Below the pieces are notes generated by a model that saw only the letters and a list, made by a program, of their open reading frames with translations, made no database searches and had not been told where the DNA came from. A DNA stretch of 64,000 bases, taken from contig NZ_AP025344.1 in the NCBI RefSeq assembly GCF_021654795.1, forward strand, positions 4,650,501 to 4,714,500. Direction: 5' to 3'. Within the stretch, counting starts at the first letter, position 1, and each line of letters opens with the position of its first letter. Shown here one piece after another: positions 48,554 through 64,000 of this stretch. The translations under genes and the position numbers were made by a program. Source of the stretch: Paenibacillus dendritiformis. GTDB lineage: Bacteria > Bacillota > Bacilli > Paenibacillales > Paenibacillaceae.

Positions 48554-48590
48554 ATAAAAAAGGCCAACCAAATTAATTGGCTGACCTCAT
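48554..48590 (-). terminator. Terminator closing the tail operon
   Basis: On the minus strand GGTCAGCCAA-TTAA-TTTGGTTGGCC forms a stem with a small mismatch and is followed by six T. It lies 35 nt after the last tail gene (48625), so the operon ends without lysis genes. Confidence 0.75.
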
Positions 48591-48624
48591 AATACGAAAT
48601 AGCGCCTGCTCTATGGCATAGCGC

Positions 48625-48732
48625 TTATGCTTCTTGTTCAAGTTTTTCCTGTACGGCTGCTTTCCAGCGCAGCGGTACGTCTTCGATCGTTTTCAATGCC
48701 TTTTTAATCAAGCCGCAGTAAATGATTACCAG
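48625..48732 (-). CDS. Small XkdX/CD1375-like phage tail-region protein
   Basis: This protein is about 35 residues long: VIIYCGLIKKALKTIEDVPL then RWKAAVQEKLEQEA. The pattern YxxLIxKGxKTIxDVPxxxxxxV is that of the tiny proteins found after tail fibres in many bacillar and clostridial prophages. It starts at CTG, 9 nt after GGAGG, overlapping the end of the previous gene; no ATG, GTG or TTG is in reach upstream. It is the last gene of the operon. Confidence 0.55.
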   Translation of the reverse strand: MVIIYCGLIKKALKTIEDVPLRWKAAVQEKLEQEA

Positions 48733-49027
48733 TACTTCTCACCTCCTTCTACGCTCATCTCGGCAAGCTCGGCAAGGGCCAATTTGATTTCGACGTTTTC
48801 CTTTAACAATTCCATAACTTTAGTCTCCAGTGTGTCCGGGCGCTCATAGTCATAATAAAATTGAGCCTTTTCCACGTCGATTTTAAGGACAGACCGCAAG
48901 CCTAGAATATGATCCGGTTGCGGTCTCTCCCCTTCGACGTGTAGCCCCGGTTCCGACATCTGCTCCTCTGTAGGATTGTAGTAATTGTTTCTACTCTTTT
49001 ACTCCGCCCATCGTAAATAACATACAT
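48726..49027 (-). pseudogene. XkdW-position tail-region protein with a one-base frameshift
   Basis: The ATG at 49027 follows GAGGAGGG and gives MYVIYDGRSKRVE; in another frame the sequence goes on NYYNPTEEQMSEPGLHVEGE, KIDVEKAQFYYDYERPDTLE and ends VEGGEKYW. Adding one A in the run near 48985 (GAAAC to GAAAAC) joins them into one protein of about 100 residues. Such proteins, with a MYVIYD start and a coiled-coil end, lie between fibre and XkdX in tail cassettes. This is a true frameshift or a sequencing error in a homopolymer. Confidence 0.6.
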
Positions 49028-49029
49028 CG

Positions 49030-49100
49030 TTATCCCTCCTCGTATAGTATTTCCTGAAGGCAGTTTTGAGTCTTTTTCCAGTCCTTTATAGGAACATAGA
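49030..49100 (-). pseudogene. C-terminal stub of a lost tail gene
   Basis: Immediately before the XkdW-like ATG a frame ends with LKAFYVPIKDWKKTQN then CLQEILYEEG and TAA, and the TAA lies inside the following gene's ribosome binding region (GAGGAGGGATAACGATG). That is the close packing of a real phage gene end. Upstream the frame is lost in the IS110 fragment. The missing gene probably lay between fibre and the XkdW-like gene, such as a fibre chaperone or a second fibre. Confidence 0.5.
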
Positions 49101-49319
49101 ATGCCTTCAAATCGTTCCGGCAACCGATTCCTTCGCTATTACCTTGCTGAAGCTGCCAACTCGTTAAAAAACCGCGACCCGGAATTCGGGGAGTACAACC
49201 GGAAGAAATTCAATAAAGTCCCTAAGCATCAACACAAACGTGCCCTCGTCTTAACAGCAAGAAAACTTGTGCGTCTGGTCGACGTGCTGCTACGCAACGA
49301 CCACCTCTATACGCCCTGA
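49101..49319 (+). mobile_element. IS110-family transposase, C-terminal fragment
   Basis: The reading is NRSGNRFLRYYLAEAANSLK, then EYNRKKFNKVPKHQHKRALV and LTARKLVRLVDVLLRNDHLY, the C-terminal end of IS110-family transposases. It begins almost at the point where the other IS110 remnant (47400-48364, opposite strand) breaks off. It lies between the tail-fibre gene and its downstream partners. Confidence 0.75.
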
Positions 49320-49528
49320 AGGAAGGTGAAAGGTAGGGAGAATTAACCCGAACGACATTCCTTTATTGACTCTTGGCCAAATTATGGTAATTTCTATAAT
49401 TTTTTTGGTGATGCCTTTTTTAGGATTGATCCTGCTGCACGCCAAGGAAAATTTCCATTTCTCATAAATCAGGGACTTGAAATCATACCGTTGGACTTAT
49501 CCTATTGAAAATTCCCGCTTTCGCGGAG
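49320..49528. other. Spacer between IS110 fragment and tail fibre
   Basis: It probably holds the 3' flank of the IS element. A short hairpin CCGC-GAAA-GCGG followed by AATTTTC on the minus strand (about 49505-49526) lies right after the tail-fibre stop and may be a weak terminator. A 27-codon hydrophobic frame at 49390 has no ribosome binding site and is not called. Confidence 0.4.
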
Positions 49529-52500
49529 CTATGCCCATACAATGTTTCCTCGCAACACTGCCTGAATATATTCAGGGTACGATGAACTGCCTACAAATTT
49601 GGCTGACTTTAGCGCTAATCTGATTTTTATAGGACCGTTGAAGTTAAAGTCTCTCGGTATCATGTACCAACGCTCTTCCAGCGGGTCGTCATTATACCAC
49701 CCTTTTTCAATGGAGACTGTATGGGGCAGGTCGCGCCGGAATGTAGCATTTTCCAGCAAGCGTATGCTTGAGTATGACGTGGAGGAGTTAGTCTCCATGT
49801 GGTGTAGGCGTATGTTACGCTCCGCATCATCTACCATTTGCAGACTGGCATACGCTTGACTGTCTCCCCAATTAACACCGTAATGATTTTTTATCTCGAA
49901 GGAGCACGTATTACTGACGTTTTCTAGGGGGCTAAAAATCACTATCTTAGGGTTGGTTATGGTAACCAAGTCTATGTTTCTTATTTGATATTCAGCAGTT
50001 ATTTTTTCATCGACCCATATAGGATAGTACCCGCCCGTACTAATGCGATTGATCCCAGCGGCCAGTTCGGGGAATGTGTTATTTGCGGACACTGGCCCGC
50101 CGCCTTTGCCGTTGACAGTCTCCGCTATCATCCCCTTACCGTCAACGACAGATTGCTTTACCAAATCGAGTTCCTCTACAACACGACGTCCTTCAAGAAA
50201 AACCCCTCCCGGACCATGAATATGAACCGCGTCCGTGGTACTTTGCATAACGAGCGGCCCCTTTTCGCTTGCCAATCGAATAGTGGATGGTTCATTTCTG
50301 TTCCCAACTCCGAACCAACCTTTTCGCTCGTTGTTTACATACCACTCACCAAAAGATGATGTAGCTCCAACAAGCTGAAGATGGGGGCCATCAGCTTTGG
50401 ACATTGACAGCATCCCTTCAATGACAGAATCACCATTCTTACCTACTGCATTTTTCTTCAAGTCATTAAACTCTGCCCTGGTTGCAGCCCCGACATCATC
50501 CGAAGTCAGCGCTACATCACCTGTCTTGCCGTTTACTGATTTGACCGGAGCGTCAATGACGGAAATCTCGGACTCAAGCAAGTTTACCGCTCGAACTAGC
50601 TCAGATACAGTTCCGCGCAGATTCGCCGCCACGGTGCCGCTGATTGGAGCCGCAAGCGTTGGATCAAGCATCGTATAGGTGACGAGGTAGATTGCGGTTG
50701 GGTCAAAATATTGTGCTTCCGTGCGTGCTGCTGAAAGCCCGTATGCATAAGGTTCTTGAGCTGAATTCAGGTATTCCCAAGTAGTATCTGTCTTCGTGTT
50801 CCTGTAGATATCATACATTTTTTTTACCCTATTCTTCAGATGCCCATTTGAACCATCAACACGGTTAATCACGGCATGTCCCCATCCAACATTTTTACTT
50901 GGGTTCGTCAGTTCCCGAATCACAATGCCGCTGCCGACCTCGACCATGTTCGAGCCTGCGGAGAGTTTGGCGCCCAACTCATAATTCCGGACGGGTTCGA
51001 CGGTTGGCTTCGCCTTCAAATATTGGAGGCGGTATGGTTGCCACTCAGTATCCGTAACAAGAGTGGTCGGAACTGTCGATACTTGAGTTCCCGAAACTCT
51101 TCCGCCTTTACCGTCTGATTTTTGCCACCATTTCGACATTCCGCCAGTCGGATCATTGTAATCTGCGCCTGTCGCGTCGTACATTTTCCAACCTAAGAAA
51201 TACGCCTTAATCTCTTCCCGAGATGGTTCGTAATCCGGCCCCCACCCGCTGTCTGAGTTGGAAATGGTAAAGTACACGTTTCCTTTTGATCCATCCCAAT
51301 CGAACCTATCCGGCCCCGAAGTTGCGGAGCCTTTCTGCAGACGGACGCCGTTGTATTTTGTAACTATGGCAACGCCGCGTAGGTCGCCGTGGACCAATGA
51401 GTTGGTTAGACCTAATTCGGCGATAACAGACTTGTATCCATTTTGCGGCGATGCGTAACGGTAATTGTATTCTCCTCTCGGCATCACCTTCCCCCACTGC
51501 TCCAACACATACGGCAGCCCATCGTCTCCCATAAAGAGCGTATCGGGATTGCTGCCGTCTACTGGATGAGCGGCCAGTTCTGTTTCGAAGCCGAGCGTGG
51601 AACGTTGCTGACGCGCGAAAGGCTTCGGTTCGGTACCAACGGTAAGGATTGGATTTTTAATGCTGTATGTCCCCGGTGTCCCTCCCGCTGAATCACCGTT
51701 TACAAATGCCACGTTTATGCGTGTATTATTTCCCGTATTAAAGGTTACCTGACTGCCTTTAAAATTAGATACTAAAGCCGTTCCAGATTCCACACCAAAA
51801 ATATTCAAACCTGCATTATGTTCAGCTGAATAAGTATAGTCTGTGTTTGGGAAAACGGGAAATGCAGGTATGTGGATGCCTGTTTGTGCAGATGTAGATA
51901 TTTGCATAACAGCTTCATAGGGCGAGATAAGCATTAAATGAGTATCGGTTAAGGCATACCACCCATCAGTAAACGGCGGCAGCAGATTACCTCCCGTTAC
52001 GATGGTGTATGGATTGGTTACATTGGTAATGCCATCAACATACGGATATGTCGCTGCAACTTGCTCTGGTGTCATGCTAACGATGATTTCATATTCGGCT
52101 TCCGATATCTCATAAAGTCGCACATCATCAAAATATGCAGTTACCCCGTCACCACCGATCACGTTTGCATTAATCCCCCGAGTGTCAGGAGTTGAAAAGT
52201 TTGCAATTGCTTTATACAAGACCTGAAACTCTTTGTTGCTAGCGGCTTGGGTTTTGGTATCTTCCATATATCCAGATACAGATAAGCTCGCAGTTGTAGC
52301 TGTCCCCACCTTTGCTTTACCTATCAGGAGATAGAACTTTTCTGCTTCAAACAAAACCTTGGTTTTAGTTACAGCTGAACCTCCGCTTGCTCCCTTTGGT
52401 GATACACAAAGCGTCTGGTCTATCGTATGTGTTGTCTGGTAGTCGGTCCACAATTCTGCGTTATCGCAGGCCCCCGCACGCCCCAACAAATTCACCAACG

Positions 52501-52690
52501 TCCGCCCCTTCACCTCCCCCATCCGGAACGGCGTGTCGTTCTCGACCTCCACCACCTGGAGGCCGGGGTTTAGCGTCAACGGCTCGTAGGCAGGGACATG
52601 GGCGTCCTTCAGGCCCTGCTCGATGCGGTTCATGTCCTTCTCGGTGACGAGGTCGTCGTATTTCCAGTCGGTCTTTGCCTCGTATGGCAT
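49529..52690 (-). CDS. Phage/tailocin tail-fibre protein
   Basis: This 1053-residue protein has an N-terminal region beginning PYEAKTDWKYDDLVTEKDMN (a short adapter found in many firmicute fibres), then a long beta-rich part with carbohydrate-binding-like segments (TTASLSVSGYMEDTKT; FLLIGK-type strands). Near 725, VKSVNGKTGDVALTSDDVGA is the common fibre linker, followed by a domain rich in G and S and a C-terminal beta domain. It begins directly after the preceding small gene, with GAGGTGG as its site. It should determine host range; the base composition is more AT-rich than its neighbours, as expected of a swapped fibre. Confidence 0.85.
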   Translation of the reverse strand: MPYEAKTDWKYDDLVTEKDMNRIEQGLKDAHVPAYEPLTLNPGLQVVEVENDTPFRMGEVKGRTLVNLLGRAGACDNAELWTDYQTTHTIDQTLCVSPKGASGGSAVTKTKVLFEAEKFYLLIGKAKVGTATTASLSVSGYMEDTKTQAASNKEFQVLYKAIANFSTPDTRGINANVIGGDGVTAYFDDVRLYEISEAEYEIIVSMTPEQVAATYPYVDGITNVTNPYTIVTGGNLLPPFTDGWYALTDTHLMLISPYEAVMQISTSAQTGIHIPAFPVFPNTDYTYSAEHNAGLNIFGVESGTALVSNFKGSQVTFNTGNNTRINVAFVNGDSAGGTPGTYSIKNPILTVGTEPKPFARQQRSTLGFETELAAHPVDGSNPDTLFMGDDGLPYVLEQWGKVMPRGEYNYRYASPQNGYKSVIAELGLTNSLVHGDLRGVAIVTKYNGVRLQKGSATSGPDRFDWDGSKGNVYFTISNSDSGWGPDYEPSREEIKAYFLGWKMYDATGADYNDPTGGMSKWWQKSDGKGGRVSGTQVSTVPTTLVTDTEWQPYRLQYLKAKPTVEPVRNYELGAKLSAGSNMVEVGSGIVIRELTNPSKNVGWGHAVINRVDGSNGHLKNRVKKMYDIYRNTKTDTTWEYLNSAQEPYAYGLSAARTEAQYFDPTAIYLVTYTMLDPTLAAPISGTVAANLRGTVSELVRAVNLLESEISVIDAPVKSVNGKTGDVALTSDDVGAATRAEFNDLKKNAVGKNGDSVIEGMLSMSKADGPHLQLVGATSSFGEWYVNNERKGWFGVGNRNEPSTIRLASEKGPLVMQSTTDAVHIHGPGGVFLEGRRVVEELDLVKQSVVDGKGMIAETVNGKGGGPVSANNTFPELAAGINRISTGGYYPIWVDEKITAEYQIRNIDLVTITNPKIVIFSPLENVSNTCSFEIKNHYGVNWGDSQAYASLQMVDDAERNIRLHHMETNSSTSYSSIRLLENATFRRDLPHTVSIEKGWYNDDPLEERWYMIPRDFNFNGPIKIRLALKSAKFVGSSSYPEYIQAVLRGNIVWA

Positions 52691-52975
52691 CTAGGCCACC
52701 TCCCTGATTGCGATTGGATGCTTGATGAGCGTATCGGTTGTAAGCGGAATGTATACCGGATTCGAGGTCAGGACCGTTCCGGCTTCATCCTGCAGTTCAA
52801 TCAGCGTCACGGTCTCCGCCGCGCCGGCAGGAATGATGTATTCCATCAGCACTTCCTGTTCCGATACATCCTTGATCTGAAAATCCGTAATTTCCACGGA
52901 TTGGTTCAGCACGACCTTGGCGATTCTACGGTTGACGTGCTGCGCCATTTCCTCCAATAAAATAGAACTAATCAT
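52691..52975 (-). CDS. Small tail-region protein
   Basis: This 94-residue protein starts at the ATG after CAGGAGG. It reads ILLEEMAQHVNRRIAKVVLN and ITDFQIKDVSEQEVLMEYII, then a beta-rich end with PLTTDTLIKHPIAIREV. Proteins of this size between baseplate (XkdU) and fibre are known in Paenibacillus prophages but have no proven function. A fibre-attachment or adapter role is an inference from position. Confidence 0.6.
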   Translation of the reverse strand: MISSILLEEMAQHVNRRIAKVVLNQSVEITDFQIKDVSEQEVLMEYIIPAGAAETVTLIELQDEAGTVLTSNPVYIPLTTDTLIKHPIAIREVA

Positions 52976-53559
52976 TTCAATACGACCTCCTGTCCCCATT
53001 CGGCAAACGGCGTCCGTCCCAGTCTCCAGCCCGTCGACAGCTTCGTCCGGCGGTTAAGCGGGATACGGCTCAAATGCTCCTGTACCTCGATCCGCTCCGA
53101 CAAGGATGTGGCCTGCCGATACAAGAGATTGGCCGGCTTCATGAAGCGCACCGTATGCTCCACTTCCTTGAAAATCGCCGCATCGGTCAGCTTCGCCCGA
53201 ACGGTCAGCTCGAAGCGCCCGACGTCGAGCTCCACCTTGGCCCGATCGGCGCCTAGCAGGAAGTCGAGCCGCTCCTGTAAGTACCGCACCGTGAACGGCG
53301 GCTTGGTCGAGTAACGGTTCATGATCCGTTTTTTCCGGAAATCCAACGACTCCTGTGCCGGGTCGGCCTGAATGCCGAGCTGTTCTTCCCTGCGCTTCAC
53401 CGAAGCCTCGCCCGCCGTGAGCACGAATTGATCGTTCAGCCATTTTTCGGCCCCGGCCGCCACGCCTTTCAGCTCCGCATCGACGGTCTCTCCCAGCCAT
53501 TCGAATTCGCGAATGCCCTCATAATAGGGAGGCAAATAGGAGCAATAGTTACGCTCCAT
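52972..53559 (-). CDS. xkdU: Baseplate protein, YmfQ/DUF2313 family (XkdU)
   Basis: This 195-residue protein of the YmfQ family (gp48 of Mu) shows YLPPYYEGIREFEWLGETVD, LTAGEASVKRREEQLGIQAD, RKKRIMNRYSTKPPFTVRYL and a beta-rich end. In Mu-like and PBSX tails it joins the baseplate wedge. It overlaps the baseplate J gene upstream by 11 nt. Confidence 0.88.
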   Translation of the reverse strand: MERNYCSYLPPYYEGIREFEWLGETVDAELKGVAAGAEKWLNDQFVLTAGEASVKRREEQLGIQADPAQESLDFRKKRIMNRYSTKPPFTVRYLQERLDFLLGADRAKVELDVGRFELTVRAKLTDAAIFKEVEHTVRFMKPANLLYRQATSLSERIEVQEHLSRIPLNRRTKLSTGWRLGRTPFAEWGQEVVLK

Positions 53560-54661
53560 GGAGCTTCACCTCCCGCAGCACAGGCACTTCCTCCTCGGCG
53601 AGCTCCAGATTGGCCGCGGCTCCGTTCAGCGTCGTGCCGCTCACATCCGCCACCCCCGGCACGGTGAGTATGCGGGCTTCCATCTGGCTGATGCGGACGA
53701 TCAGCTTCTCCTCGTCCTTCCACGACTCCCGCAGCAGATGCATATATTGCTGCAGCACCTGCTCGACGGCGCCCTGCACCTGGCCAAGCGTCATTCCCTT
53801 GTCGAGCTGCAGCGTCGTCTCGACCTGCAACTCCACGGGACGTACCGCCGCAATCGTCACCTGATGCCCGATGGGAGCGAAGCCTCCGCCCATGCCGGCC
53901 GCCGCCTTGGGATCTGTCTGCTCCTGAACCTCGGCAATCAGTTCCGCAGACGGAACTTGATAATCCGACGAGATGAGCGTACACTTCACCGTCCCGCCCC
54001 CTTGCCAGGCCGGAAACACCTTCACTCCGCCTACGCCCGGCATGACGGTCAGCTTCGTCCGATAGTCGGACACATTGCCCCCGAACGGCTGCTCGTTAAT
54101 CGCTTCAAGATAGCGAGCTCGCAGCGCGTCATCGGATTCCGTGTCCTCCCCGGGAACGAGAATGTCCCCCAGTTCCGCCCGCGCCAACCCGGCGATATAG
54201 TCGATCGGCGTCAGTTCCCCATAGAGCCGGTTGCCGTCCGCTCCCTCCGTCTCGCAGGTCAGCTCGCTTTCCCCAGGGGTCAGCGATGCCGTTACCCGCC
54301 ATGTCAGATCTTCGATCGCAAAACGGCTGCCGATCGGCACGCTCTTCGGCGATCCGTCCGCAGCGTAAAATCTCCCGCGGCGCTTAGCGGCGACTGCGGG
54401 CAGCCGCCGCACGCCGAACTCGGCCGTGCGGCGCTCCAGATAAGCGCCTGTGGCCGTATCGGCATAGGATAGCTCGCGGTTCAGACTCATCTCTTGATAC
54501 CACTGCGCCAATTCGGCCGCGACCGGCGCGAGCGCATCGTAGATGATGCTGCCTTCCCGCTTGTCCACCGCATTGGGAACCCGCTCCAGCATGCGCGCCA
54601 AAATATCCTCATAACGAGGAGTTTCCTGGATGCGCTCTTGTCCTCCAATTCCATTATCCAT
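53549..54661 (-). CDS. xkdT: Baseplate J-like protein (XkdT)
   Basis: This 370-residue baseplate wedge protein carries the gpJ signatures RVPNAVDKREGSIIYDALAP, YLERRTAEFGVRRLPA, GDILVPGEDTESDDALRARY, and AINEQPFGGNVSDYRTKLTV with MPGVGGVKVFPAWQGGGTVK. It overlaps the XkdS gene by 8 nt. Confidence 0.94.
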   Translation of the reverse strand: MDNGIGGQERIQETPRYEDILARMLERVPNAVDKREGSIIYDALAPVAAELAQWYQEMSLNRELSYADTATGAYLERRTAEFGVRRLPAVAAKRRGRFYAADGSPKSVPIGSRFAIEDLTWRVTASLTPGESELTCETEGADGNRLYGELTPIDYIAGLARAELGDILVPGEDTESDDALRARYLEAINEQPFGGNVSDYRTKLTVMPGVGGVKVFPAWQGGGTVKCTLISSDYQVPSAELIAEVQEQTDPKAAAGMGGGFAPIGHQVTIAAVRPVELQVETTLQLDKGMTLGQVQGAVEQVLQQYMHLLRESWKDEEKLIVRISQMEARILTVPGVADVSGTTLNGAAANLELAEEEVPVLREVKLHGA

Positions 54662-55067
54662 TGACGGTCACCTCCTTCATCGTCTGCACCGTCCCTTCCG
54701 TCGTTTCCACCGTGAAGCTAACCAGCATGGCATCCTTCGCCGATTGGAATTCGAATGCGGTCACGCTCCGCACCCGGTCATCCTGCATCAGCGCTTCGGT
54801 AATCGCCCGTTCCAATTCAGATTGAACGAACCCCGCGCCATACCCGAGATTCGCTCTCAGCTCGGTTCCGTAATTCGGACTATAGATGAGATGCTCATAC
54901 CGTTCCGTCTGAAGCAGCTTGTCTATCGCCTGCTTCATCGCATCCAGGCCATCGGTTATACCTGCAATCCTTCCCGTTCTGCGATCAATTCGGTAGGTCC
55001 TTGTCGGCTGGCTGGCCTCGGCAACTTCAAAAGTATCCTCCATATCCATCAGCACTTGTGGAATCAC
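54654..55067 (-). CDS. xkdS: DUF2634 baseplate protein (XkdS)
   Basis: This 137-residue baseplate protein of the gp25/W type (lysozyme-like fold without the lysozyme site) includes TYRIDRRTGRIAGITDGLDA, MKQAIDKLLQTERYEHLIYS, NYGTELRANLGYG and a C-terminal strand pair. The order XkdS before XkdT is the same as in PBSX. It overlaps its upstream neighbour by 4 nt. Confidence 0.9.
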   Translation of the reverse strand: MIPQVLMDMEDTFEVAEASQPTRTYRIDRRTGRIAGITDGLDAMKQAIDKLLQTERYEHLIYSPNYGTELRANLGYGAGFVQSELERAITEALMQDDRVRSVTAFEFQSAKDAMLVSFTVETTEGTVQTMKEVTVNG

Positions 55068-55363
55068 AGACCCACCACCCTGTCGATAGCAATATACATC
55101 TGGCCGCCCTGCGCGCGGGCGAGCAGCACCTTGTCACCGGCCTTCAACCCTTGCCGGATGACGACCTCCTCCGTGCCGATCCGTACCTTATACTCCGTTA
55201 ACTGCTCGGTTACGGCAATGGCGCTGGCAGGAAGAGAGAACCGCTGATCGACCTGAATGCGGAGCGGAGCGGCGCTCAACACCTCGCCGAACAGCAGCGA
55301 GACCGGACTGGAGGCCTCGACGGCGCCCACTCCGGCTTTTTTGATAATATCCAGCATCCCCAT
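55064..55363 (-). CDS. xkdR: DUF2577 tail protein (XkdR)
   Basis: This 99-residue protein reads MGMLDIIKKAGVGAVEASSP, VLSAAPLRIQVDQRFSLPAS and LKAGDKVLLARAQGGQMYIA, the DUF2577 pattern found in PBSX-type baseplates. It has an OB-like beta structure and is likely to contribute to the central hub. It lies 2 nt after xkdQ. Confidence 0.88.
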   Translation of the reverse strand: MGMLDIIKKAGVGAVEASSPVSLLFGEVLSAAPLRIQVDQRFSLPASAIAVTEQLTEYKVRIGTEEVVIRQGLKAGDKVLLARAQGGQMYIAIDRVVGL

Positions 55364-55365
55364 AT

Positions 55366-56334
55366 CTAGATCACCTTCAATGTTAGTGACATCTTATGTC
55401 CCGAACCGTCCCAATCGTGGGAGCATTCATCGATGAGCATATATTGCTGAATCTGTTGTTCGGGCAAATAAAGAGGGATGTACATTCCGGCCCGAATGCG
55501 CACATCCCCTACGGCGTCTACTTTTAATGTTTTTTTCTCGCGGTTGTGAAGCTTCATATAGGAGGCGAGAAGCTCCTTGATTTGGGCGTCATTCATGCCC
55601 TCATCGAGTTTTTCGGACAACTGCAGTCTTCCCCATCTTGCGATGTTCGCACTGTCTTGCATAATGAATGTCTCGCGCTTGCCCGACGCCTTGTTGTCCC
55701 GGAACAGCTTCACGCGGTTGTAGGTCTCATCGTCAATCGACCGCTTGTGCGAGAACCCCCGCATCTGACTCTCTTCACCGATAATGATGTCGGTTGTCCA
55801 CGTTTTCGCATCCCGCAGCGTCAGCTTGCCGAAGTCGTCATAAAAGATGAAAATATTGCGCGTCGCAATCAACGTCTTAGCCAGCGCGCGGCAGATGATA
55901 TCGAGCAGCTTCTTGTTATCCTCCATCACGAGAGGAATGACATGCTTCGTGTCGGCCAGATCGCCGATCTTCAGCTCGCAGTCCTTCGCTATCCGCTTGA
56001 TGAGATCCGTGGCCGTCACATTTTCGAGCACATACGTATCGTTCGTTAGCAAGTACCGGATCTGGTCATAGGCGGTCAGCTTCACCTTATCGTCCTCACT
56101 GGTCTCGATGGTGAACACATATCCGTAAAATACAGGCTTGCCGTCGACCTTCACCCGCACGACATCGCCATTGTTGACGGTGAATTTACGGCTCTGGAAC
56201 AGCGCTCCGGATACATAAGTCAAGGACATCTTAGCCGGCTTGCCGGAACGGGACGTCGACCAGGTCATATCGGTAATCAGCTCGGAAATATCCCACATCG
56301 TCTTATTGCGGTTATCAATAATGACTTCGATCAT
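55366..56334 (-). CDS. xkdQ: Baseplate hub protein (XkdQ)
   Basis: This 322-residue protein is related to gpD of P2/gp27-type hubs: NKTMWDISELITDMTWSTSR, VRVKVDGKPVFYGYVFTIET, DDKVKLTAYDQIRYLLTNDT and, near the end, LYLPEQQIQQYMLIDECSHD followed by W and a beta strand. It is expected at the centre of the baseplate. It is preceded by the LysM protein and followed by xkdR. Confidence 0.9.
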   Translation of the reverse strand: MIEVIIDNRNKTMWDISELITDMTWSTSRSGKPAKMSLTYVSGALFQSRKFTVNNGDVVRVKVDGKPVFYGYVFTIETSEDDKVKLTAYDQIRYLLTNDTYVLENVTATDLIKRIAKDCELKIGDLADTKHVIPLVMEDNKKLLDIICRALAKTLIATRNIFIFYDDFGKLTLRDAKTWTTDIIIGEESQMRGFSHKRSIDDETYNRVKLFRDNKASGKRETFIMQDSANIARWGRLQLSEKLDEGMNDAQIKELLASYMKLHNREKKTLKVDAVGDVRIRAGMYIPLYLPEQQIQQYMLIDECSHDWDGSGHKMSLTLKVI

Positions 56335-57023: not shown

Positions 57024-59053
57024 CAGCCGTACACCCCTTCCGCCGTCGAGACGAACTCTTCCTCCAGCTTCTGTTCGATCCGGTTGATGAGCGTATCGAA
57101 GTCAAAGCCTTGGTGGATGTCGCCTGTGGACACCTGCACCGTCGGGGTCAGCGTCACGAAGTTCTGAATGCTGTCCATCTCCGCCAGCTCCCGCATCATC
57201 ATCAGCTTCTCGTCGGAAATGTCGACCTCGCCTTCAACCTTGCCGATTTTGCCGACTTCTCCTACCTTCGAGATTTGCGGCGCATTCATGCCCGTGGCGA
57301 TTGGCTTGAACTGGTCTGTTCCTGTTGGGCCGGGATCGGCTGCCTTCTTCATCAAATCGCTTGTGAAGCCACTATTTTTAGTTATGAAATCCTGGCCCTT
57401 TTGAAACGCATCCGCTATGTTAGTCTGCTCCATGCGGTAGTCTGAAAGATCAACCAAATCATCCCCGTCCGCTGTGGGCTTCATTTTTTCTACCCAATCC
57501 GTGCTCCACTCGTTAACTGTCTCAAATGTGGAGCCAGTTAATTTATTTATAAAAGTAATGACCTTGTTGATGCCACGAATGATCGAATTAATCGCGTTAA
57601 AAGAGAATTCTACAATGTCTTTAAACAAATCGTAATATAGTTTTTTTACTGCATAAATGGGATTTTTGAATATATTTGCAAAGAACTCCCCAAATGCCAC
57701 TATACGATTCCATGCAAAGGCAATGACATTCTTGATTGATGCGCCGAGAGCAAAAAAGTAGCCTATAATAGCACCAATTATGGTTCCTGTAGACACACCG
57801 AAATAATTTAATATTTCTAAGACTAGAAAAATCGCTCCTACTATCGCAAAAATCGGCCAAGCCGCAATCAGCCACTGAACGAGCCAGATCGCAGCGACCG
57901 CGGCAACAACGATGCCGATGGCAACGAGGGCATTTTCGACCAGGCTCCAGTTTTCCAGCAGAAAGCCCACGACCGTTTCCGTGATGGATCCAAGCAAGCT
58001 TAATCCGCCATGAATCGCTTCGAAAAAGCCGTTGAACCGCCCTTCCTCAAATGCCTGATTCAATAATTCCAGTACGGGGCCGAACGCCATCATGGCCGTC
58101 TCGCCCATTAAGGCCAGCATGCCTTGGAAGCGATTGACGGCAAGCTCCCATTGCTTCACCGGACTTTCCATCAAAAGAGCAAGAGATTCCTGGCTCATCC
58201 CGGCCTTGGTTATCAGTTCATCGAAGGCCTCCAGGAAACCGTCCAAATTCCCGGTCTGGCCGAAGGACTCCATTTTATTCTGCAGGTCCTCATTGATCGG
58301 CAGATTCAACTGCCCAAGCAGGCCATCCGCCTTCCCGAAGTAAGCCTCCTTCATCGAGCCTGCAAGTCCGGCGGCATTTTCGTTCGGCCGGAAGGCGGCC
58401 AAGCGCTGGACCATTTCATTCATCTTAGTGACATCATTGGCATTTTTCGATATCGAAGTCAGCACAAGCCCGGACTCCAATGACTGGTTCACATCACGCC
58501 CCGACTTGAGCGCTTGGGACCTCATCGTCTCGAACACCGCCGCTCCCTGCTGCGCATTGCCATATTGCGCCTGGTAGCGGGAACGGAAATCTTCCGCCGC
58601 AGCCGCATTCTGAATCGCTTGGGCGCCCATCGTCTGGAGCGCGTTCAATAAGGGAAGGGCCGCGTTTTTCATTTTCTGCCCAACCGTTATCTTTTCTTTA
58701 TCCTTGCCCTTCTTCTTTTGCTGTTCCTTGCCTTTCTCTTCTGTGGCCCCTCCTGCTTCCACTGCGGAGGCGCCTGCTGCTTCAACCGCTTTTGTGAAGC
58801 TGTGAGCCGCATCGCTCCATTCCTTGCCCGCGTGCGCAGCAAGCTGCTTCCATGACTCTGTCATCGAATGAAATGACTTCTTCACGACTTCATCAATCGA
58901 AGCCATGATTCTCAGATGCGTCATCCCCATCATTTTCAGCATCGGGTTGAATTCGAAGCTCCAATCGTTCCGCATGCGGTTGACACGCTGGGGGAGCACG
59001 ACAGGAGCCGGCGGCTGTGGCGGCTTGAAGATGATAAGCTGCTTCTCGTTCAT
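57023..59053 (-). CDS. xkdO: Tail tape-measure protein (XkdO)
   Basis: This 676-residue protein is long and helical, with a low-complexity charged stretch (EEKGKEQQKKKGKDKEK near 130), then coiled coil, three hydrophobic segments (about 380-440) and a polar tail. Length scales with tail length; about 0.15 nm per residue would give roughly 100 nm, a short contractile tail like PBSX. It follows the frameshifted assembly chaperone after 90 nt, as expected. Confidence 0.88.
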   Translation of the reverse strand: MNEKQLIIFKPPQPPAPVVLPQRVNRMRNDWSFEFNPMLKMMGMTHLRIMASIDEVVKKSFHSMTESWKQLAAHAGKEWSDAAHSFTKAVEAAGASAVEAGGATEEKGKEQQKKKGKDKEKITVGQKMKNAALPLLNALQTMGAQAIQNAAAAEDFRSRYQAQYGNAQQGAAVFETMRSQALKSGRDVNQSLESGLVLTSISKNANDVTKMNEMVQRLAAFRPNENAAGLAGSMKEAYFGKADGLLGQLNLPINEDLQNKMESFGQTGNLDGFLEAFDELITKAGMSQESLALLMESPVKQWELAVNRFQGMLALMGETAMMAFGPVLELLNQAFEEGRFNGFFEAIHGGLSLLGSITETVVGFLLENWSLVENALVAIGIVVAAVAAIWLVQWLIAAWPIFAIVGAIFLVLEILNYFGVSTGTIIGAIIGYFFALGASIKNVIAFAWNRIVAFGEFFANIFKNPIYAVKKLYYDLFKDIVEFSFNAINSIIRGINKVITFINKLTGSTFETVNEWSTDWVEKMKPTADGDDLVDLSDYRMEQTNIADAFQKGQDFITKNSGFTSDLMKKAADPGPTGTDQFKPIATGMNAPQISKVGEVGKIGKVEGEVDISDEKLMMMRELAEMDSIQNFVTLTPTVQVSTGDIHQGFDFDTLINRIEQKLEEEFVSTAEGVYG

Positions 59054-59142: not shown

Positions 59143-59325
59143 CTACCGCTTCTTCATCTTGCGCTGCGCGCGGCGTTCTTCTTCCACGCGGATGTCGATC
59201 ATCGCATAGATGGCTGCCCGCTCGCGCTCGGGCAGAGCGAGCAGCTCATGCGGCAGAATGCGAAGCTTGTGGAGGGCGTAATAGGCATAGTTCGCTTCGC
59301 CGTCGCCCTCCCGGATTAGTTTTTT
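59143..59325 (-). CDS. Frameshift extension of the tail assembly chaperone
   Basis: At the end of the xkdN frame the sequence GTA-AAA-AAC-TAA contains the canonical slippery heptamer A-AAA-AAC (59325-59319). A -1 shift there reads on into LIREGDGEANYAYYALHKLR, ILPHELLALPERERAAIYAM and IDIRVEEERRAQRKMKKR before TAG at 59143. The extension has no start codon of its own, its composition is protein-like, and it ends just before the tape-measure gene. This is the gpG-gpGT arrangement of tail assembly chaperones; the fused product has about 198 residues. Confidence 0.85.
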   Translation of the reverse strand, partial: KKLIREGDGEANYAYYALHKLRILPHELLALPERERAAIYAMIDIRVEEERRAQRKMKKR

Positions 59326-59738
59326 ACTTCATCAATGAGCTCGTTCATGTCCTGATTGAAGCCATTCAGTTCCTGAACCTCTTGCAGCAACGCCGCATAT
59401 TCTCCCGGCAGGAGCATCTTCCGAAGCAACGCTTCCGCGCCCATGACGCCATACGATTGCTGCAGCTCCGAGTTTTTCAGATCCGGAAAGACGACGCTCG
59501 CCACGATCAGCTTCGCCGTATATTCATTGAAATCAATCTCCGGCGTTACGGTACCTCCCTTGCCCTTCTTCTGCTTGGTCGCGGCCTTGCGGCACTGCTC
59601 GTTCTCGACCTCGCTGATGCTGCGAAGCTGCCATGGCACCGGCTCTCCCTGTTCATCCTTGAAGCGGGCAGAGACGACATAAGCCGTCTCCGTATTCGCC
59701 TCCGCATTTTGGGCCAAAAAATATCGCAATGAACTCAT
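59316..59738 (-). CDS. xkdN: Tail assembly chaperone (XkdN)
   Basis: This 140-residue protein starts at the ATG 9 nt after GAGGTGAG (an upstream frame start lacks one). It reads MSSLRYFLAQNAEANTETAY, FKDEQGEPVPWQLRSISEVE, NEYTAKLIVASVVFPDLKNS and ends LIDEVKN. This matches PBSX XkdN. It binds the tape measure during tail assembly. Its stop codon directly follows the slippery site, so most ribosomes make this short form and a minority the extended one. Confidence 0.9.
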   Translation of the reverse strand: MSSLRYFLAQNAEANTETAYVVSARFKDEQGEPVPWQLRSISEVENEQCRKAATKQKKGKGGTVTPEIDFNEYTAKLIVASVVFPDLKNSELQQSYGVMGAEALLRKMLLPGEYAALLQEVQELNGFNQDMNELIDEVKN

Positions 59739-59768
59739 TGCTGCTCTCACCTCGAATGTTATTTATAA

Positions 59769-60227
59769 TTACGAAATGCTATTGAAGTTATTTAAAATAT
59801 CAACGTCATCAAACGTAAACTCGACTTCCTCTTCCAACACGTCGCTCTCCGTATCCAGCTTCGCCATGACGACGCTGTTCAGATTGACGTTCTTCAAGCA
59901 TACCGTCTGCGTGCCAATCGAGGACATCGGATCTTCATTCGTAATCTGGATAATGAAGTTCGTGTCTTTGCCATGCTTGATATAATCAAGCATCATATTG
60001 CGGAACAGCGGCGTCATATAGTAGATCGTCATGCTGCCGGTTCCCGTCCAGCCCGCTGCCTTATGCTGCACGCTTCGGCTGCCGAGCACCTTGACTTCCG
60101 CTTTCTGCTTTTCGATCTTCGCCTCCAGCGTCTTCACATAGAACATTTCCTCGTTTTTACCGTCAATCTGAGCAAATGCCCGGCCTTCGCGGCCCGAAAT
60201 CGTATCCTTCGCCTGCAACAATGCCAT
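59769..60227 (-). CDS. xkdM: Tail tube protein (XkdM)
   Basis: This 152-residue tube protein reads LQAKDTISGREGRAFAQIDG, ETFYVKTLEA-type beta strands (FYVKTLEAKIEKQKAEVKVL), GWTGTGSMTIYYMTPLFRNM and the end EEEVEFTFDDVDILNNF. It is the XkdM/DUF2001 pattern of contractile tails. The start is within 2 nt of the sheath stop, and translational coupling is likely. Confidence 0.92.
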   Translation of the reverse strand: MALLQAKDTISGREGRAFAQIDGKNEEMFYVKTLEAKIEKQKAEVKVLGSRSVQHKAAGWTGTGSMTIYYMTPLFRNMMLDYIKHGKDTNFIIQITNEDPMSSIGTQTVCLKNVNLNSVVMAKLDTESDVLEEEVEFTFDDVDILNNFNSIS

Positions 60228-60228
60228 G

Positions 60229-61545
60229 TTACTTCACCTTCACTTTCATATAAATTTTCTCTACGGCGTCTGCCGGCTGCACCGCCAGTTGAATGACGAT
60301 GCTATCGCTCGTATCGCCGGCTGTGACCTGTACATCGGTCTGCGCATCAAATGGCTGAATCGCGGACAAGCGCACGAGCTGGTCAAGGTAAGCGATGCAT
60401 TCGCCGCGGAACAACTGGCGGCCGTCGCCGTTGTTGTTCACCTTGCCGACATAGGACGTCTCGAACAACTGCTTCATATCGTTGGCAATGCCGTCAAGCA
60501 CTCGAACGACCCGGTTTTTGGAGAAAACGCGGCCCTTATCCGGAGTATAAGACGTAAAGCTGTTGATATCCTGCTCGACCACCGCGCGGCCCCGCTGATG
60601 GACGAATACGAACTCGCCCGCCTCCAGTGCGGCTTCGACCTGGCGGTTCGTCAGCCGCACGTCCGCGTCGATCGCATCTTCATACGCGGTATAGGTGAGT
60701 GACTCATTCATTGCCGCCGCAGCCGTAGCGGCAGCCACCCACACGCACGCTTCGGCTGGGCCGAGCACAGTGCCGTCCGCTAACTTGACTCCGTTCTTCA
60801 CGCTGATGACGCCTTCGCTGTCCGCCAGCGGATAGTTCGGCAGCACCGCCTGAACCTTTTTCCCTTCCTCCTCGCGCATCCGCTTGATGAAGGCGGTATA
60901 TACGGAAGCAAGTGTCTTCTCCTCCGACGGCAGGGCCACCGCATGGAAATCCTGCACCGCCAGCGCATCCAGGAAGTTCATATGGTCTTCATTCGTCGCC
61001 GCGCCGTCCTCGCCGCCAGTCAGCGGCAAGCCCGCGATCGCCTCCAGCGCTCCGCTGCCTTCGAATTCCACCCAAGCGTTGGCCTTGAGCTCCTCTGCTT
61101 GGGCGACGGTCTGAAGATCGACCTCGCGACCCGCGATCTTCGTAATAACGTCCATCTTCGTATCGTCGAGAACGTTCGGACGTACGACGAGTACGATGTC
61201 GTTCCCGCGAACGCCGCCGCAGCGGGCAATGGCCTTCCATCCCTCGTGAGTCGCCTGGGCCTTGGCGCCTTCATTCAACCGATACAACAGCACCGTCTTG
61301 GCCCGCTTGAATGCTTCGCGCACCAACAGCAGCGCCTTGTCCGTCACCTCATAACCAAGAAGCTCGAAAGTCGTCTCTCCGGCTGGCAGTTCCAGCACCT
61401 GACGGGCTGGTCCCCAGCTCAACTTCAGCGGCAGGGCCACAACCCCGCGCTCTCCCACCGTTCCCATCGGGCCCGCTTCCGAGTCGAAGCGCACATATAC
61501 GCCCGGTCTTACTTTGTTCTGCGTCATCCATGTTCCTCCAGCCAT
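60229..61545 (-). CDS. xkdK: Contractile tail sheath protein (XkdK)
   Basis: This 438-residue protein starts at the ATG after CAGGAGG; the longer frame is spurious. It reads GGTWMTQNKVRPGVYVRFDS, GERGVVALPLKLSWGPARQV, later VVEQDINSFTSYTPDKGRVF and NRVVRVLDGIANDMKQLFET, all marks of the phage sheath family (XkdK). The presence of a sheath makes the tail contractile. The gene overlaps the end of a small upstream gene. Confidence 0.95.
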   Translation of the reverse strand: MAGGTWMTQNKVRPGVYVRFDSEAGPMGTVGERGVVALPLKLSWGPARQVLELPAGETTFELLGYEVTDKALLLVREAFKRAKTVLLYRLNEGAKAQATHEGWKAIARCGGVRGNDIVLVVRPNVLDDTKMDVITKIAGREVDLQTVAQAEELKANAWVEFEGSGALEAIAGLPLTGGEDGAATNEDHMNFLDALAVQDFHAVALPSEEKTLASVYTAFIKRMREEEGKKVQAVLPNYPLADSEGVISVKNGVKLADGTVLGPAEACVWVAAATAAAAMNESLTYTAYEDAIDADVRLTNRQVEAALEAGEFVFVHQRGRAVVEQDINSFTSYTPDKGRVFSKNRVVRVLDGIANDMKQLFETSYVGKVNNNGDGRQLFRGECIAYLDQLVRLSAIQPFDAQTDVQVTAGDTSDSIVIQLAVQPADAVEKIYMKVKVK

Positions 61546-61720
61546 CACAATACCTCCTGAATCATAAATTGGTACAGCAGCGCAGCAACCTGCGCCTTCG
61601 TATACATGCCGTCCTCGCGGAGCAGCGCATGCAGCATATCCCGCTCCCGTCCGCTGTCCGCCTTCGCTTCCAGCCATTGCGCCTTCGTGTAAGCCGTCTC
61701 TTGCCCATCAATGCTCATCT
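61545..61720 (-). pseudogene. Small gene before the sheath, broken by a CG duplication
   Basis: The ATG at 61720 follows AGGAGGGGCGG and reads MSIDGQETAYTKA; the frame then breaks. Two bases later it continues QWLEAKADSGRERDMLHALL, REDGMYTKAQVAALLYQFMI and ends QEVL with a TGA that overlaps the sheath ATG. Removing one CG from the run GCGCGC near 61681 restores a 57-residue protein. It is either a two-base duplication or a sequencing artefact. Such small proteins lie before the sheath in PBSX-like tails. Confidence 0.55.
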
Positions 61721-62139
61721 CGAATCCGCCCCTCCTGCTTCATTGCTTCCATCTTGCTGCCCGCCTCCCGCTCCCGCAGCAGCGTGAGCGCATACTGCAC
61801 CCGGAAGCGCAGTAGATGATCCGGGTACTCGTGGCTCATCTCGGCGCCGCGGCAGCGCATCTTCCCGAAGTCGACGAACTCCAGCGCGTCATACAGCGCG
61901 TCGGCGACCTCGTCGGGATGCGGCCGTTCCCCGGTCTCTCCTGGCACATAGTCGACCTCCACCTGCCACGCTGCCGCATAGCGGCGCTCCCCTATGCGCT
62001 GCCTGCTGCCGCTGCGAAGACGGAGGGCGCAGTACGGCGCAATCGCGTCCGCTGCCGCCTCGGCATCCAGCACCGGCATACCTGGGAAGATCTCCTCAAG
62101 CCGCCGCATCACGCCTTGCCGAATCTCGGCACTGTGCAC
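61708..62139 (-). CDS. Tail terminator-like protein (DUF6838 type)
   Basis: This 143-residue protein uses a GTG start right after GGGGGGAG; upstream ATG starts are weaker. It reads MRRLEEIFPGMPVLDAEAAA, WQVEVDYVPGETGERPHPDE and HEYPDHLLRFRVQYALTLLR. Its place before the sheath and its size match PBSX-type tail terminator proteins, which cap the tail tube and, in full phages, join the head. It is the first gene of the tail operon here. Confidence 0.72.
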   Translation of the reverse strand: MHSAEIRQGVMRRLEEIFPGMPVLDAEAAADAIAPYCALRLRSGSRQRIGERRYAAAWQVEVDYVPGETGERPHPDEVADALYDALEFVDFGKMRCRGAEMSHEYPDHLLRFRVQYALTLLREREAGSKMEAMKQEGRIRDEH

Positions 62140-62203
62140 ATTTTCTCCCCCCCTGCAATCCGGCGTACCTGTGAAGCAGTCACTGCATCCTCTCCAAAAA
62201 CAA

Positions 62204-62465: not shown

Positions 62466-62500
62466 AAAAACGCCCGTCACGGAAATCCGCAACGAGCGTT
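62466..62500 (-). terminator. Terminator of the activator gene
   Basis: AACGC-and-GCGTT with inner pairing CGGA/TCCG form a stem; on the minus strand TTTTTGATC follows. It is about 60 nt after the stop of the ArpU-type gene. Confidence 0.7.
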
Positions 62501-62562
62501 GGTTCGATCTAGCGATCGGTACATCAGTAATATACACTTCTTGATCCCACATCCTATTACCG

Positions 62563-62985
62563 CTACTCCGCATACACTTCCAGCCCGAGCAGGAAAGCCA
62601 GCTCCATTACCCCGCGTGCCTTGATGCGGCGGAAGGTGCGTTCGCTAACATTCATCTCATGGCAGAGCAAATAATCCGGCGTGCTGTTCTGCGGGCTGAG
62701 GTAGCAGCGCTCGATCACGCCCCGCTCCGCCTCGCCCAGATGGGCAATCGCCTTGGTCACATTGTCATGGACGGTCTTCATATATTGCTCCCTCTCAACA
62801 TTGTGGACCGCGGTCTCCTCGACTGGCTTCCCGACCTTGTGCGTCGTGCCGTGATAACGGGGAATATAAGCCAGCGTCGTCCGCATCTCCCGCCGTACGG
62901 CACCGGCCTTGCGGTACAGCTTCGCCACAGCCAACACCGATTCCACCCGCTTGCGCGTCTCTGCCCGATTAATGGTTGCCAACAT
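62563..62985 (-). CDS. ArpU-family phage late-gene activator
   Basis: This 140-residue protein has sigma-factor-like character. It reads LATINRAETRKRVESVLAVA, VEREQYMKTVHDNVTKAIAH, LGEAERGVIERCYLSPQNST and a C-terminal helix-turn-helix LLCHEMNVSERTFRRIKARG. It belongs to the ArpU-type regulators of late phage genes (packaging, tail, lysis). GGGGAG precedes the ATG. It is the likely switch for the tail operon that follows in the same direction. Confidence 0.82.
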   Translation of the reverse strand: MLATINRAETRKRVESVLAVAKLYRKAGAVRREMRTTLAYIPRYHGTTHKVGKPVEETAVHNVEREQYMKTVHDNVTKAIAHLGEAERGVIERCYLSPQNSTPDYLLCHEMNVSERTFRRIKARGVMELAFLLGLEVYAE

Positions 62986-63140
62986 CGTGAACCACTCCCC
63001 AATTCGTTATTTATAAAATAAAATAAATATAAAAAACTTTAAAAAGTTATTAAAAACAACAATCAGAAAATAATAAGGGTTCATGCTGGCTGTCTAAACC
63101 AACCATCCCAAATCCCCTCAACCTAGGAAAAAGACCTCTT

Positions 63141-63159
63141 TCGTTATTTACAATAACGA
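63141..63159. promoter_or_regulatory. Palindromic operator candidate
   Basis: TCGTTATT-TAC-AATAACGA is a perfect 8-bp inverted repeat with a 3-bp centre, between the divergent activator and repressor genes. The first half-site TTATTT recurs near 63006. It is a plausible binding site for the Xre-type repressor encoded to the right. Confidence 0.5.
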
Positions 63160-63203
63160 TCTATACTGAAAGAAATATATTTTCAACAACATGCACCAAA
63201 CTG

Positions 63204-63232
63204 TTGAGAACAAATGTTCGCAATGTTATACT
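63204..63232 (+). promoter_or_regulatory. Repressor-operon promoter with LexA (SOS) box
   Basis: TTGAGA (63204-63209) and TATACT (63227-63232, with an extended TG) are 17 nt apart. Between them GAACAAATGTTC (63208-63219) is an exact match to the GAAC-N4-GTTC LexA/DinR box of bacilli, overlapping the -35 end. LexA should block this promoter, and DNA damage should open it. Confidence 0.75.
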
Positions 63233-63308
63233 GCAAGCATACCATACCGCCGAAGTGAGCGTCAACGATGAATTGATGCTCATATATTAAAGGACGAGGG
63301 TGATAACG

Positions 63309-63740
63309 ATGACTGGCAAGAACAGAGAAGTGATGGGTTCACGAATCAAGCAGCTCCGCTTGAAGCACGGCCTCTCCCAGGATGACGTCGCCCATGCGCT
63401 CGGGATGAAGCGCGCCAATGTGGCCAACTATGAAGCGGGACGCACGACGCCGCCGAGCGATATTATCGGACGCCTGGCCGATATGCTGCACACCTCTGCC
63501 GACTATCTGCTCGGGCGGACGGACAACCCGCTCGCGCTGCATGCGGCGGGCACGATACCGGAATGGGCCACCGCCAAGGACAAGCGTGATTTCCGCAAAA
63601 TGCTGGAGGAAGATCCGGAGGTGATGTTCGACGGCGTGCCGATGGACGAAGACGACCGCGAACGGGTGATTCAAGTGCTGGAAGCCTTGTTCTGGGATGC
63701 GAAGAAGAGGAACAAACGGAAGCCGAAGCGAACGGAATGA
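63309..63740 (+). CDS. Xre-family repressor (ImmR-like)
   Basis: This 143-residue protein starts at the ATG 9 nt after GACGAGGG (a GTG three codons earlier is too close to the site). The helix-turn-helix (about 7-62) is MGSRIKQLRLKHGLSQDDVA then HALGMKRANVANYEAGRTTP, the lambda-repressor fold. The C-terminal half (DKRDFRKMLEEDPEVMFDGV and DDRERVIQVLEALFWDAKKR) is that of ImmR-like repressors whose activity is ended by an ImmA protease. It is followed after 33 nt by such a protease gene. Confidence 0.88.
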   Translation: MTGKNREVMGSRIKQLRLKHGLSQDDVAHALGMKRANVANYEAGRTTPPSDIIGRLADMLHTSADYLLGRTDNPLALHAAGTIPEWATAKDKRDFRKMLEEDPEVMFDGVPMDEDDRERVIQVLEALFWDAKKRNKRKPKRTE

Positions 63741-63773
63741 ACATTCGAACCTTGAAACCGCGGGGTGCATGGC

Positions 63774-64000
63774 ATGGATGTTGAGAACATCGTAAGCAAG
63801 CTGATTCGGAAATACAAAACGAACTGTCCTTTTCAACTGGCGCAGCGGCTGAACATAATCGTCAAGCAAGCGCGGCTCGGCAATTCGACGCGCGGATTCT
63901 ATTACCGCAAGCTGCGCCGACGCTATATCGTGATCAATACCGATCTGCCGTTCGAGTGGCAGCGCTTCGTCTGCGCGCATGAGCTCGCCCACGACCGGCT
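63774..64000 (+). CDS. ImmA/IrrE-type metallopeptidase, cut by the window end
   Basis: The first 75 residues are MDVENIVSKLIRKYKTNCPF, LAQRLNIIVKQARLGNSTRG, YIVINTDLPFEWQRFVCAHE and LAHDR. The zinc site HELAH is present at the very end. This family includes B. subtilis ImmA, which cleaves the adjacent Xre-type repressor after DNA damage. The gene continues beyond the window. Confidence 0.85.
   Translation, partial: MDVENIVSKLIRKYKTNCPFQLAQRLNIIVKQARLGNSTRGFYYRKLRRRYIVINTDLPFEWQRFVCAHELAHDR

What the first reader, a model, noticed from the sequence alone, without database searches (positions are those of the whole stretch)
48554..64000. Capsid-less contractile tail cassette: probable PBSX-like tailocin
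Going leftward from the ArpU-type activator (62985) the next genes are already tail terminator, sheath, tube, chaperone, tape measure, baseplate and fibre. No terminase, portal, protease or capsid gene fits in the 420-nt spacer. Sheath and tape measure (about 100 nm) predict a short contractile tail. A regulator pair (Xre, ImmA) stands divergently. This is the layout expected for a phage-tail-like bacteriocin. No holin or endolysin is seen before the operon terminator, so release would need a lysis module elsewhere.
Basis: partly seen in the sequence, partly recalled or inferred. Interest (0 to 1): 0.72.

Follow-up and report, generated by a model that had tools for sequence, protein, structure and literature searches.

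The report
Headless phage-tail weapon in Paenibacillus chromosome
This stretch encodes a complete spring-loaded phage tail without any phage head, kept at the same chromosomal site and kept intact by selection in ten Paenibacillus species, so it is very probably a bacteriocin-type killing particle (a tailocin) rather than a broken virus; nobody has yet shown that it kills anything.

Summary
Confirmed and extended. The window's genome is one 6.5-Mb contig. Just beyond 64 kb lie only the rest of ImmA and then ordinary chromosomal genes, so no terminase, portal or capsid gene belongs to this operon. The same headless cassette sits between the same flanking genes in 10 of 19 congeners (P. alvei, apiarius, profundus and dendritiformis among them). 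It never has head genes, its core proteins are under strong purifying selection (dN/dS mostly 0.02-0.17, like neighbouring genes), and its fibre tip is hypervariable. An empty site exists in one close relative. The Xre/activator intergenic region holds two near-perfect operator dyads and a conserved LexA-type box, so SOS control is likely. The operon lacks holin and endolysin in nine of the ten species, not only here. "PBSX-like" is imprecise: the nearest annotated phage tail is Brevibacillus phage Jimmer (sheath 49%, tape measure 677 aa against 676 here). Headless relatives are common across Paenibacillus and relatives, and several lineages carry two different contractile tails in tandem. Best reading: a domesticated R-type tailocin. 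Killing activity and release are untested.

The parts
63765..64000 (+). ImmA metalloprotease gene (continues to C1:4714735, 156 aa), last gene of the element
   Evidence: PF06114 E 2e-14
63300..63740 (+). Xre/cI-type repressor, 146 aa
   Evidence: PF01381 HTH_3 E 4e-13; 99-100% identical in the four closest relatives
63208..63219 (.). LexA-type box GAACAAATGTTC (palindrome GAACN4GTTC) in the spacer of the xre promoter (TTGAGA 63204 / TATACT 63232)
   Evidence: same aligned column in 10 of 10 orthologous loci; three such boxes upstream of this genome's lexA and a one-mismatch site upstream of recA; promoter
63143..63157 (.). putative Xre operator GTTATTGTAAATAAC
   Evidence: dyad GTTRTTN3AAYAAC conserved in the orthologs; 0.07 expected per 300 bp
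63046..63060 (.). putative Xre operator GTTGTTTTTAATAAC
62563..62985 (-). ArpU/sigma-like late activator, 140 aa
   Evidence: phrog_248 transcriptional activator E 5e-22
61708..62139 (-). tail terminator, probable GTG start at 62139
   Evidence: PF20765 E 1e-25; homologue of Jimmer gp13 in the orthologs
60229..61545 (-). contractile tail sheath, 438 aa
   Evidence: PF04984, PF17482, PF17481, PF22671; PDB 3hxl E 7e-150
59769..60227 (-). tail tube (XkdM-type)
   Evidence: PF09393 E 2e-48; PDB 2guj E 2e-35
59316..59750 (-). tail assembly chaperone gpG (XkdN)
   Evidence: PF08890 E 2e-48
59143..59322 (-). gpT part of the chaperone, reached by -1 frameshift at A_AAA_AAC
   Evidence: reading frame conserved in all six relatives compared
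57023..59053 (-). tape measure protein, 676 aa
   Evidence: phrog_1068 E 3e-87
56346..57023 (-). LysM baseplate protein (XkdP-like; PHROG label 'endolysin' but no lytic domain found)
   Evidence: PF01476 E 8e-5; phrog_380 E 2e-52
55366..56334 (-). YqbQ-type baseplate hub
   Evidence: PF24032 E 5e-118
55064..55363 (-). DUF2577 baseplate-region protein
   Evidence: PF10844 E 5e-21
54654..55067 (-). sheath initiator (gp25-like)
   Evidence: PF10934 E 1e-28
53549..54661 (-). baseplate J-like wedge protein
   Evidence: PF04865 E 3e-55
52972..53559 (-). Mu Gp48-like baseplate protein
   Evidence: PF10076 E 2e-22
52691..52999 (-). small baseplate/fibre-linking protein
   Evidence: phrog_6293 E 6e-20
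49529..52690 (-). tail fibre, 1053 aa; conserved N-terminus, hypervariable tip
   Evidence: phrog_13022 E 1e-185; identity profile
48726..49027 (-). post-fibre gene (MYVIYD... type), frameshifted here, intact homologue in G007
48630..48742 (-). XkdX-like small ORF
   Evidence: reading frame, similar ORF in G007
48560..48588 (-). operon terminator
   Evidence: 12-bp stem then T-rich tail

Best explanation
A domesticated R-type (contractile) tailocin operon. Shown by sequence: a complete contractile-tail gene set, no head or packaging genes, fixed chromosomal position, purifying selection, a conserved switch region and a hypervariable fibre tip. Inferred: Xre bound to the GTTRTTN3AAYAAC operators silences the activator gene. 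DNA damage lifts LexA from the box in the xre-immA promoter, ImmA rises and cleaves Xre, and the sigma-like activator then switches on the tail operon. Particles of about 100 nm assemble (terminator cap, sheath, tube, tape measure, baseplate), the fibre binds a surface receptor of related bacteria, and contraction drives the tube through the envelope and depolarises the cell. The lysis step is not encoded in the operon. Release would need lysis genes elsewhere, for example those of the prophage at about C1:239-265 kb, which carries a holin and an amidase.
For: Tail set by HMM. No head gene beyond the window, nor in any of the 10 orthologous loci. Same flanks, GMD and permease, in the orthologs, with sheath identity tracking permease identity: 94-97/98-99, 74-76/74-75, 71/70%. 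Permease and GMD are 411 bp apart in G010, an empty site. dN/dS of 12 tail and regulator genes is mostly 0.02-0.17, against 0.05-0.08 for flanking genes, with no stops. The chaperone frameshift is conserved. Fibre: first 100 aa 58-83% identical, last 350 aa mostly 0-21% outside G007/G018, while neighbouring genes are over 90% identical in the closest species. LexA-type box and operators conserved. Ten IMG/VR contigs with 75% or more sheath identity show no head genes. The query clade of 10 sheaths has SH-aLRT 100 and no head-bearing member.
Against: No lysis module in nine of ten orthologous operons. The post-fibre gene is frameshifted here and IS110 debris surrounds it. In G009 the tape measure is split by a transposon. 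G010 lacks the cassette. No hydrolase domain was found in the tail, unlike the diffocin hub. No experiment shows particles, induction or killing.
Confidence: 0.8

Rival explanations
1. A decaying prophage remnant without function: the head and lysis genes were lost by deletion and the tail genes simply have not eroded yet.
For: Lysis genes missing, frameshifted post-fibre gene and IS110 fragments next to it; transposon in the G009 tape measure; cassette absent in G010.
Against: Ten species share the headless state at one site; tail genes have dN/dS mostly 0.02-0.17 and no stops; frameshift site, operators and LexA-type box are conserved over 71-76% protein identity; headless clusters cut at the same boundary recur in other lineages.
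Confidence: 0.1
2. A contractile injection system that is not released by dedicated lysis: it acts inside or from the dying cell (as reported for the Streptomyces system, PMC10020575) or is freed only when the mother cell lyses at sporulation.
For: No holin or endolysin in the operon in nine species; the hosts are spore formers (own knowledge).
Against: Switch region looks like phage SOS control, not sporulation control; most sampled relatives at other loci keep a holin and/or an endolysin; the outgroup ortholog G013 has holin and amidase.
Confidence: 0.07
3. Tail half of a phage or satellite that gets its head from another element in the same cell.
For: The genome has a second contractile-tail prophage with terminase- and portal-like genes at about C1:239-265 kb.
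Against: That prophage has its own, distant tail (sheath 31%); no integrase or packaging gene was seen in the cassette or its flanks; no ortholog has one.
Confidence: 0.03

Closest known systems
Brevibacillus phages Jimmer1/2, Osiris, Powder, Abouo, Davies (complete contractile phages)
   Same: Sheath 49%, same tail gene order, tape measure 677 against 676 aa; gp13 is the homologue of the tail terminator in the orthologs
   Different: They carry terminase, portal, head and packaging genes upstream of gp13; the window has none
PBSX / PBP180 defective phages
   Same: xkd-type tail order, sigma-like positive control factor, bacteriocin-like use (PMC9406221)
   Different: Have terminase, portal and capsid genes; 1288-aa tape measure; sheath 44%; holin and amidase in the operon
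Diffocin (R-type bacteriocin of Clostridioides difficile)
   Same: Headless contractile tail of a Gram-positive, SOS-inducible (PMC4453579, PMC11329794)
   Different: Sheath is a shorter two-domain type (354 aa, E 2e-20); its hub carries a peptidoglycan hydrolase, none found here
R-pyocins of Pseudomonas aeruginosa (own knowledge)
   Same: Fixed chromosomal locus, repressor/activator switch, variable fibre; R and F cassettes in tandem resemble the tandem cassettes in G007/G018
   Different: Lysis genes inside the cluster; a different phage lineage; here both tandem tails are contractile
Brevibacillus laterosporus phage tail-like bacteriocin (PMC9406221)
   Same: PBSX-like region in a related family, mitomycin-inducible tail-like structures
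   Different: Region keeps holin and amidase
PVC/Afp-type extracellular injection system of Paenibacillus sp. URHA0014 (PMC12923769)
   Same: Contractile particle in the genus
   Different: A PVC-compatible toxin-delivery type; none of its hallmark genes seen here

Membership tests
R-type tailocin (phage tail-like bacteriocin) | Complete contractile tail gene set | tested here: met
R-type tailocin (phage tail-like bacteriocin) | No head, packaging, replication or integration genes in the element | tested here: met
   Open frames on both sides read; head-protein search of all orthologs. Integrase judged from the frames, not by an HMM on every one
R-type tailocin (phage tail-like bacteriocin) | Stable, vertically inherited chromosomal locus under purifying selection | tested here: met
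R-type tailocin (phage tail-like bacteriocin) | Diversified receptor-binding fibre tip | tested here: met
R-type tailocin (phage tail-like bacteriocin) | SOS-type induction | tested here: inconclusive
   Conserved LexA-type box and operators; no expression data
R-type tailocin (phage tail-like bacteriocin) | Lysis genes in the cluster (usual, not universal: a figure legend in PMC4453579 says the lysis cassette is present only in the compared prophage) | tested here: not met
R-type tailocin (phage tail-like bacteriocin) | Headless particles that kill related bacteria | not testable with these tools
   needs induction, microscopy and spot assays
PBSX family of defective phages | Capsid, portal and terminase genes upstream of the tail | tested here: not met
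   compare PBP180
PBSX family of defective phages | Sheath and tape measure of the PBSX type (long tape measure, 1288 aa in PBP180) | tested here: not met
   44% sheath identity, 676 against 1288 aa
Diffocin family | Short two-domain sheath and hub-hydrolase | tested here: not met
   438-aa sheath with extra domains, no hydrolase domain found
PVC/Afp-type eCIS | AAA+ ATPase (Afp15-like) and toxin payload genes in the operon | tested here: not met
   no such gene between the activator and the terminator

The most novel reading that the evidence does not exclude
Paenibacillaceae have repeatedly turned contractile phages into headless tail operons and stacked two different contractile tails in one locus; in the clade of the window the tail is kept by selection although its operon has lost every lysis gene, which would mean a contractile weapon whose release is uncoupled from its own operon (a prophage's lysis genes, or mother-cell lysis).
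Probability: 0.3. Interest if true: 0.7.

Novelty: new member of a known kind. Interest (0 to 1): 0.5.

Why it matters
Few tailocins of Gram-positive bacteria are characterised and I found no report of one in Paenibacillus in the held library. This one is a clean, testable case: ten species, one locus, an empty-site strain, a predicted SOS switch and a hypervariable fibre. It would give narrow-spectrum killers for a genus with soil, plant and insect members, and it raises the question of how a tailocin without lysis genes leaves the cell. The tandem contractile pairs in relatives suggest selection for two target ranges from one operon.

Tried and rejected
PBSX family: rejected on head genes and tape measure. 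Diffocin family: rejected on sheath type and hub. 'No lysis because IS110 inserted here': rejected as the whole story, since eight further orthologs also lack a working module and G007/G018 show only remnants. LysM protein as endolysin (PHROG label): rejected; it lies at the XkdP baseplate position and has no lytic domain. Strict CGAACN4GTTCG scan of the genome: few hits and more in the control, so uninformative; lexA and recA promoters were used instead. RNA families and tRNAs: none. PADLOC: none. Structure prediction not used: the families are clear by sequence and the fibre tip has too few relatives for a good model.

Full report
OBSERVATION. The window is C1:4650501-4714500 of a 6,547,390-base single-contig genome. 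On the minus strand, from 62985 down to 48560, the genes are: activator, tail terminator, sheath, tube, chaperone, tape measure, LysM protein, hub, DUF2577, sheath initiator, baseplate J, Gp48-like, a small linker, a 1053-aa fibre, a frameshifted small gene, an XkdX-like ORF and a terminator. The sheath really starts at 61545, because the first 44 codons of the longer frame hold stops in P. alvei-type relatives. Between chaperone and tape measure there is a conserved -1 frame (LIREGDGEANYAYYALHKLRILPHELLALPERERAAIYAMIDIRVEEERRAQRKMKKR) behind a slippery A_AAA_AAC, the usual gpG/gpGT arrangement of tail chaperones.

BEYOND THE WINDOW. ImmA ends at C1:4714735. A GDP-mannose dehydratase-like gene, a LuxR regulator, a histidine kinase, LacI and FeoB follow. 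No phage head gene is there.

SAME LOCUS IN RELATIVES. Seventeen of the 19 genomes searched in the genus have a sheath hit. In ten of them (G000, G002, G003, G007, G008, G009, G011, G013, G016, G018) the order is GMD - ImmA - Xre - activator - tail - permease (in G009 the GMD hit is partial, and in G011 the permease is on another contig). Matching contig names and lengths of named records point to P. alvei DSM 29 (G002), P. apiarius (G003), P. dendritiformis (G008), Paenibacillus sp. 2.1 (G009), P. profundus (G011) and Paenibacillus sp. NAIST15-1 (G016). Sheath identity falls with permease identity, as expected for vertical descent. In G010 permease and GMD are 411 bp apart and the sequence upstream of GMD matches the window genome right up to the ImmA stop. 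In G006 (and, by position, G001 and G015) the site holds a gene that reads as mannose-1-phosphate guanylyltransferase.

HEAD GENES. Terminase, portal, morphogenesis and capsid proteins of Jimmer2, PBP180, phiC2 and EJ-1 found complete head blocks upstream of the sheath in true prophages (P. alvei second locus, G001, G006 and others) and none in the ten orthologs. Of 95 sheaths, 25 have a head block, 66 have none with more than 6 kb of upstream DNA seen, and 4 are cut short. On the tree the label needs 13 changes, at least 4 forced by starred branches, and the query clade of ten is headless with full support. The head search is by BLAST and could miss very divergent heads; reading the upstream frames of 15 headless loci gave regulators, chromosomal genes or another tail cassette, not a head block. 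Ten IMG/VR contigs with 75% or more sheath identity are this same cassette without a head, as far as they reach.

SELECTION. dN/dS between the window and its four closest orthologs is mostly 0.02-0.17 for twelve core genes (one Gp48 value is 0.27), with no stops; permease, pepA and GMD give 0.05-0.08. The fibre differs: 58-83% identity over its first 100 residues, about 25-60% over the next 600, and mostly 0-21% over the last 350, except in G007/G018 where residues 700-900 are still 48-73%. A maintained machine with a changing tip is what tailocins show.

REGULATION. The Xre-activator intergenic region has a GAACN4GTTC palindrome in the same column in all ten loci although the four middle bases and the flanks vary. 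It lies in the spacer of a consensus promoter for xre. Three exact copies of the motif lie upstream of lexA in this genome and a one-mismatch copy upstream of recA. Two further dyads, GTTATTGTAAATAAC and GTTGTTTTTAATAAC, are conserved as GTTRTTN3AAYAAC; 0.07 such sites are expected per 300 bp. I read the first as LexA-bound and the others as Xre-bound; that is inference. The ten loci are not independent: they fall into roughly four groups.

LYSIS. In the window the operon ends in IS110 debris and a terminator without holin or endolysin. The ortholog in G013 has a holin-like and an amidase gene after the fibre. G007 and G018 keep only endolysin remnants. G002, G003, G008, G009, G011 and G016 have none that I could find. 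Most more distant headless clusters sampled do have a holin and/or an endolysin. So the loss is a property of the clade. The genome's prophage at about C1:239-265 kb has a holin and an amidase (read from the frames and by BLAST) and could act in trans.

TANDEM TAILS. In G007 and G018 a second headless contractile tail (sheath 27% identical; tape measure 1286 aa in G007) is inserted between the activator and the tail terminator, so both would be read from one switch. Its closest relative in the genus set is a prophage of G010 that does have a portal gene (sheath 81%). A tandem upstream tail cassette also occurs in sixteen named loci of the P. xylanexedens/amylolyticus group, and G012/G004 have a second, shorter-sheath tail behind the lysis genes.

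WHAT IT IS. The tail belongs with the Jimmer/EJ-1 type rather than PBSX. As a system it works like an R-type tailocin. Every sequence-level feature tested is met except the lysis module; SOS control is suggestive only, and bactericidal activity cannot be tested here. I found no paper on a Paenibacillus tailocin in seven searches of the held open library; subscription papers are not covered.

Noticed in passing
L031/L032 (G007) and L033/L034 (G018), between activator and tail terminator: A second headless contractile tail cassette with its own fibre, in tandem with the window-type tail and apparently under the same activator.
   Followed up: partly
L118 1-9600 and L160 6185-18871; also L100, L107, L113, L116, L117, L120, L121, L123, L124, L132, L134, L136, L141-L143: Sixteen named loci of the P. 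xylanexedens/amylolyticus group carry a tandem upstream tail cassette; no head gene was found.
   Followed up: partly
L046/L047 (G012) and L048/L049 (G004): Headless tail, then holin and amidase, then a second contractile tail with a 332-aa sheath.
   Followed up: partly
C1:~239000-265000 (L059/L060): A second contractile prophage in the same genome with terminase- and portal-like genes, holin and amidase; its post-fibre gene resembles the frameshifted one in the window.
   Followed up: partly
L029/L030 (G009), tape measure gene: Tape measure split by a transposase-bearing insertion of about 1.6 kb, so that strain's cassette is probably dead.
   Followed up: partly
window 48086-48421 and 49101-49319: Two IS110-family transposase fragments on either side of the frameshifted post-fibre gene (sub-threshold Pfam matches).
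   Followed up: no
window 46400-47400: Fragments that look like a broken MFS-type transporter between the IS debris and the permease; similar debris in G007, G009 and G018.
   Followed up: no
L035/L036 (G003), oriented 34625-35173: A 182-aa secreted-looking protein with a hydrophobic C-terminal part right behind the tail operon; possible bacteriocin, not tested.
   Followed up: no
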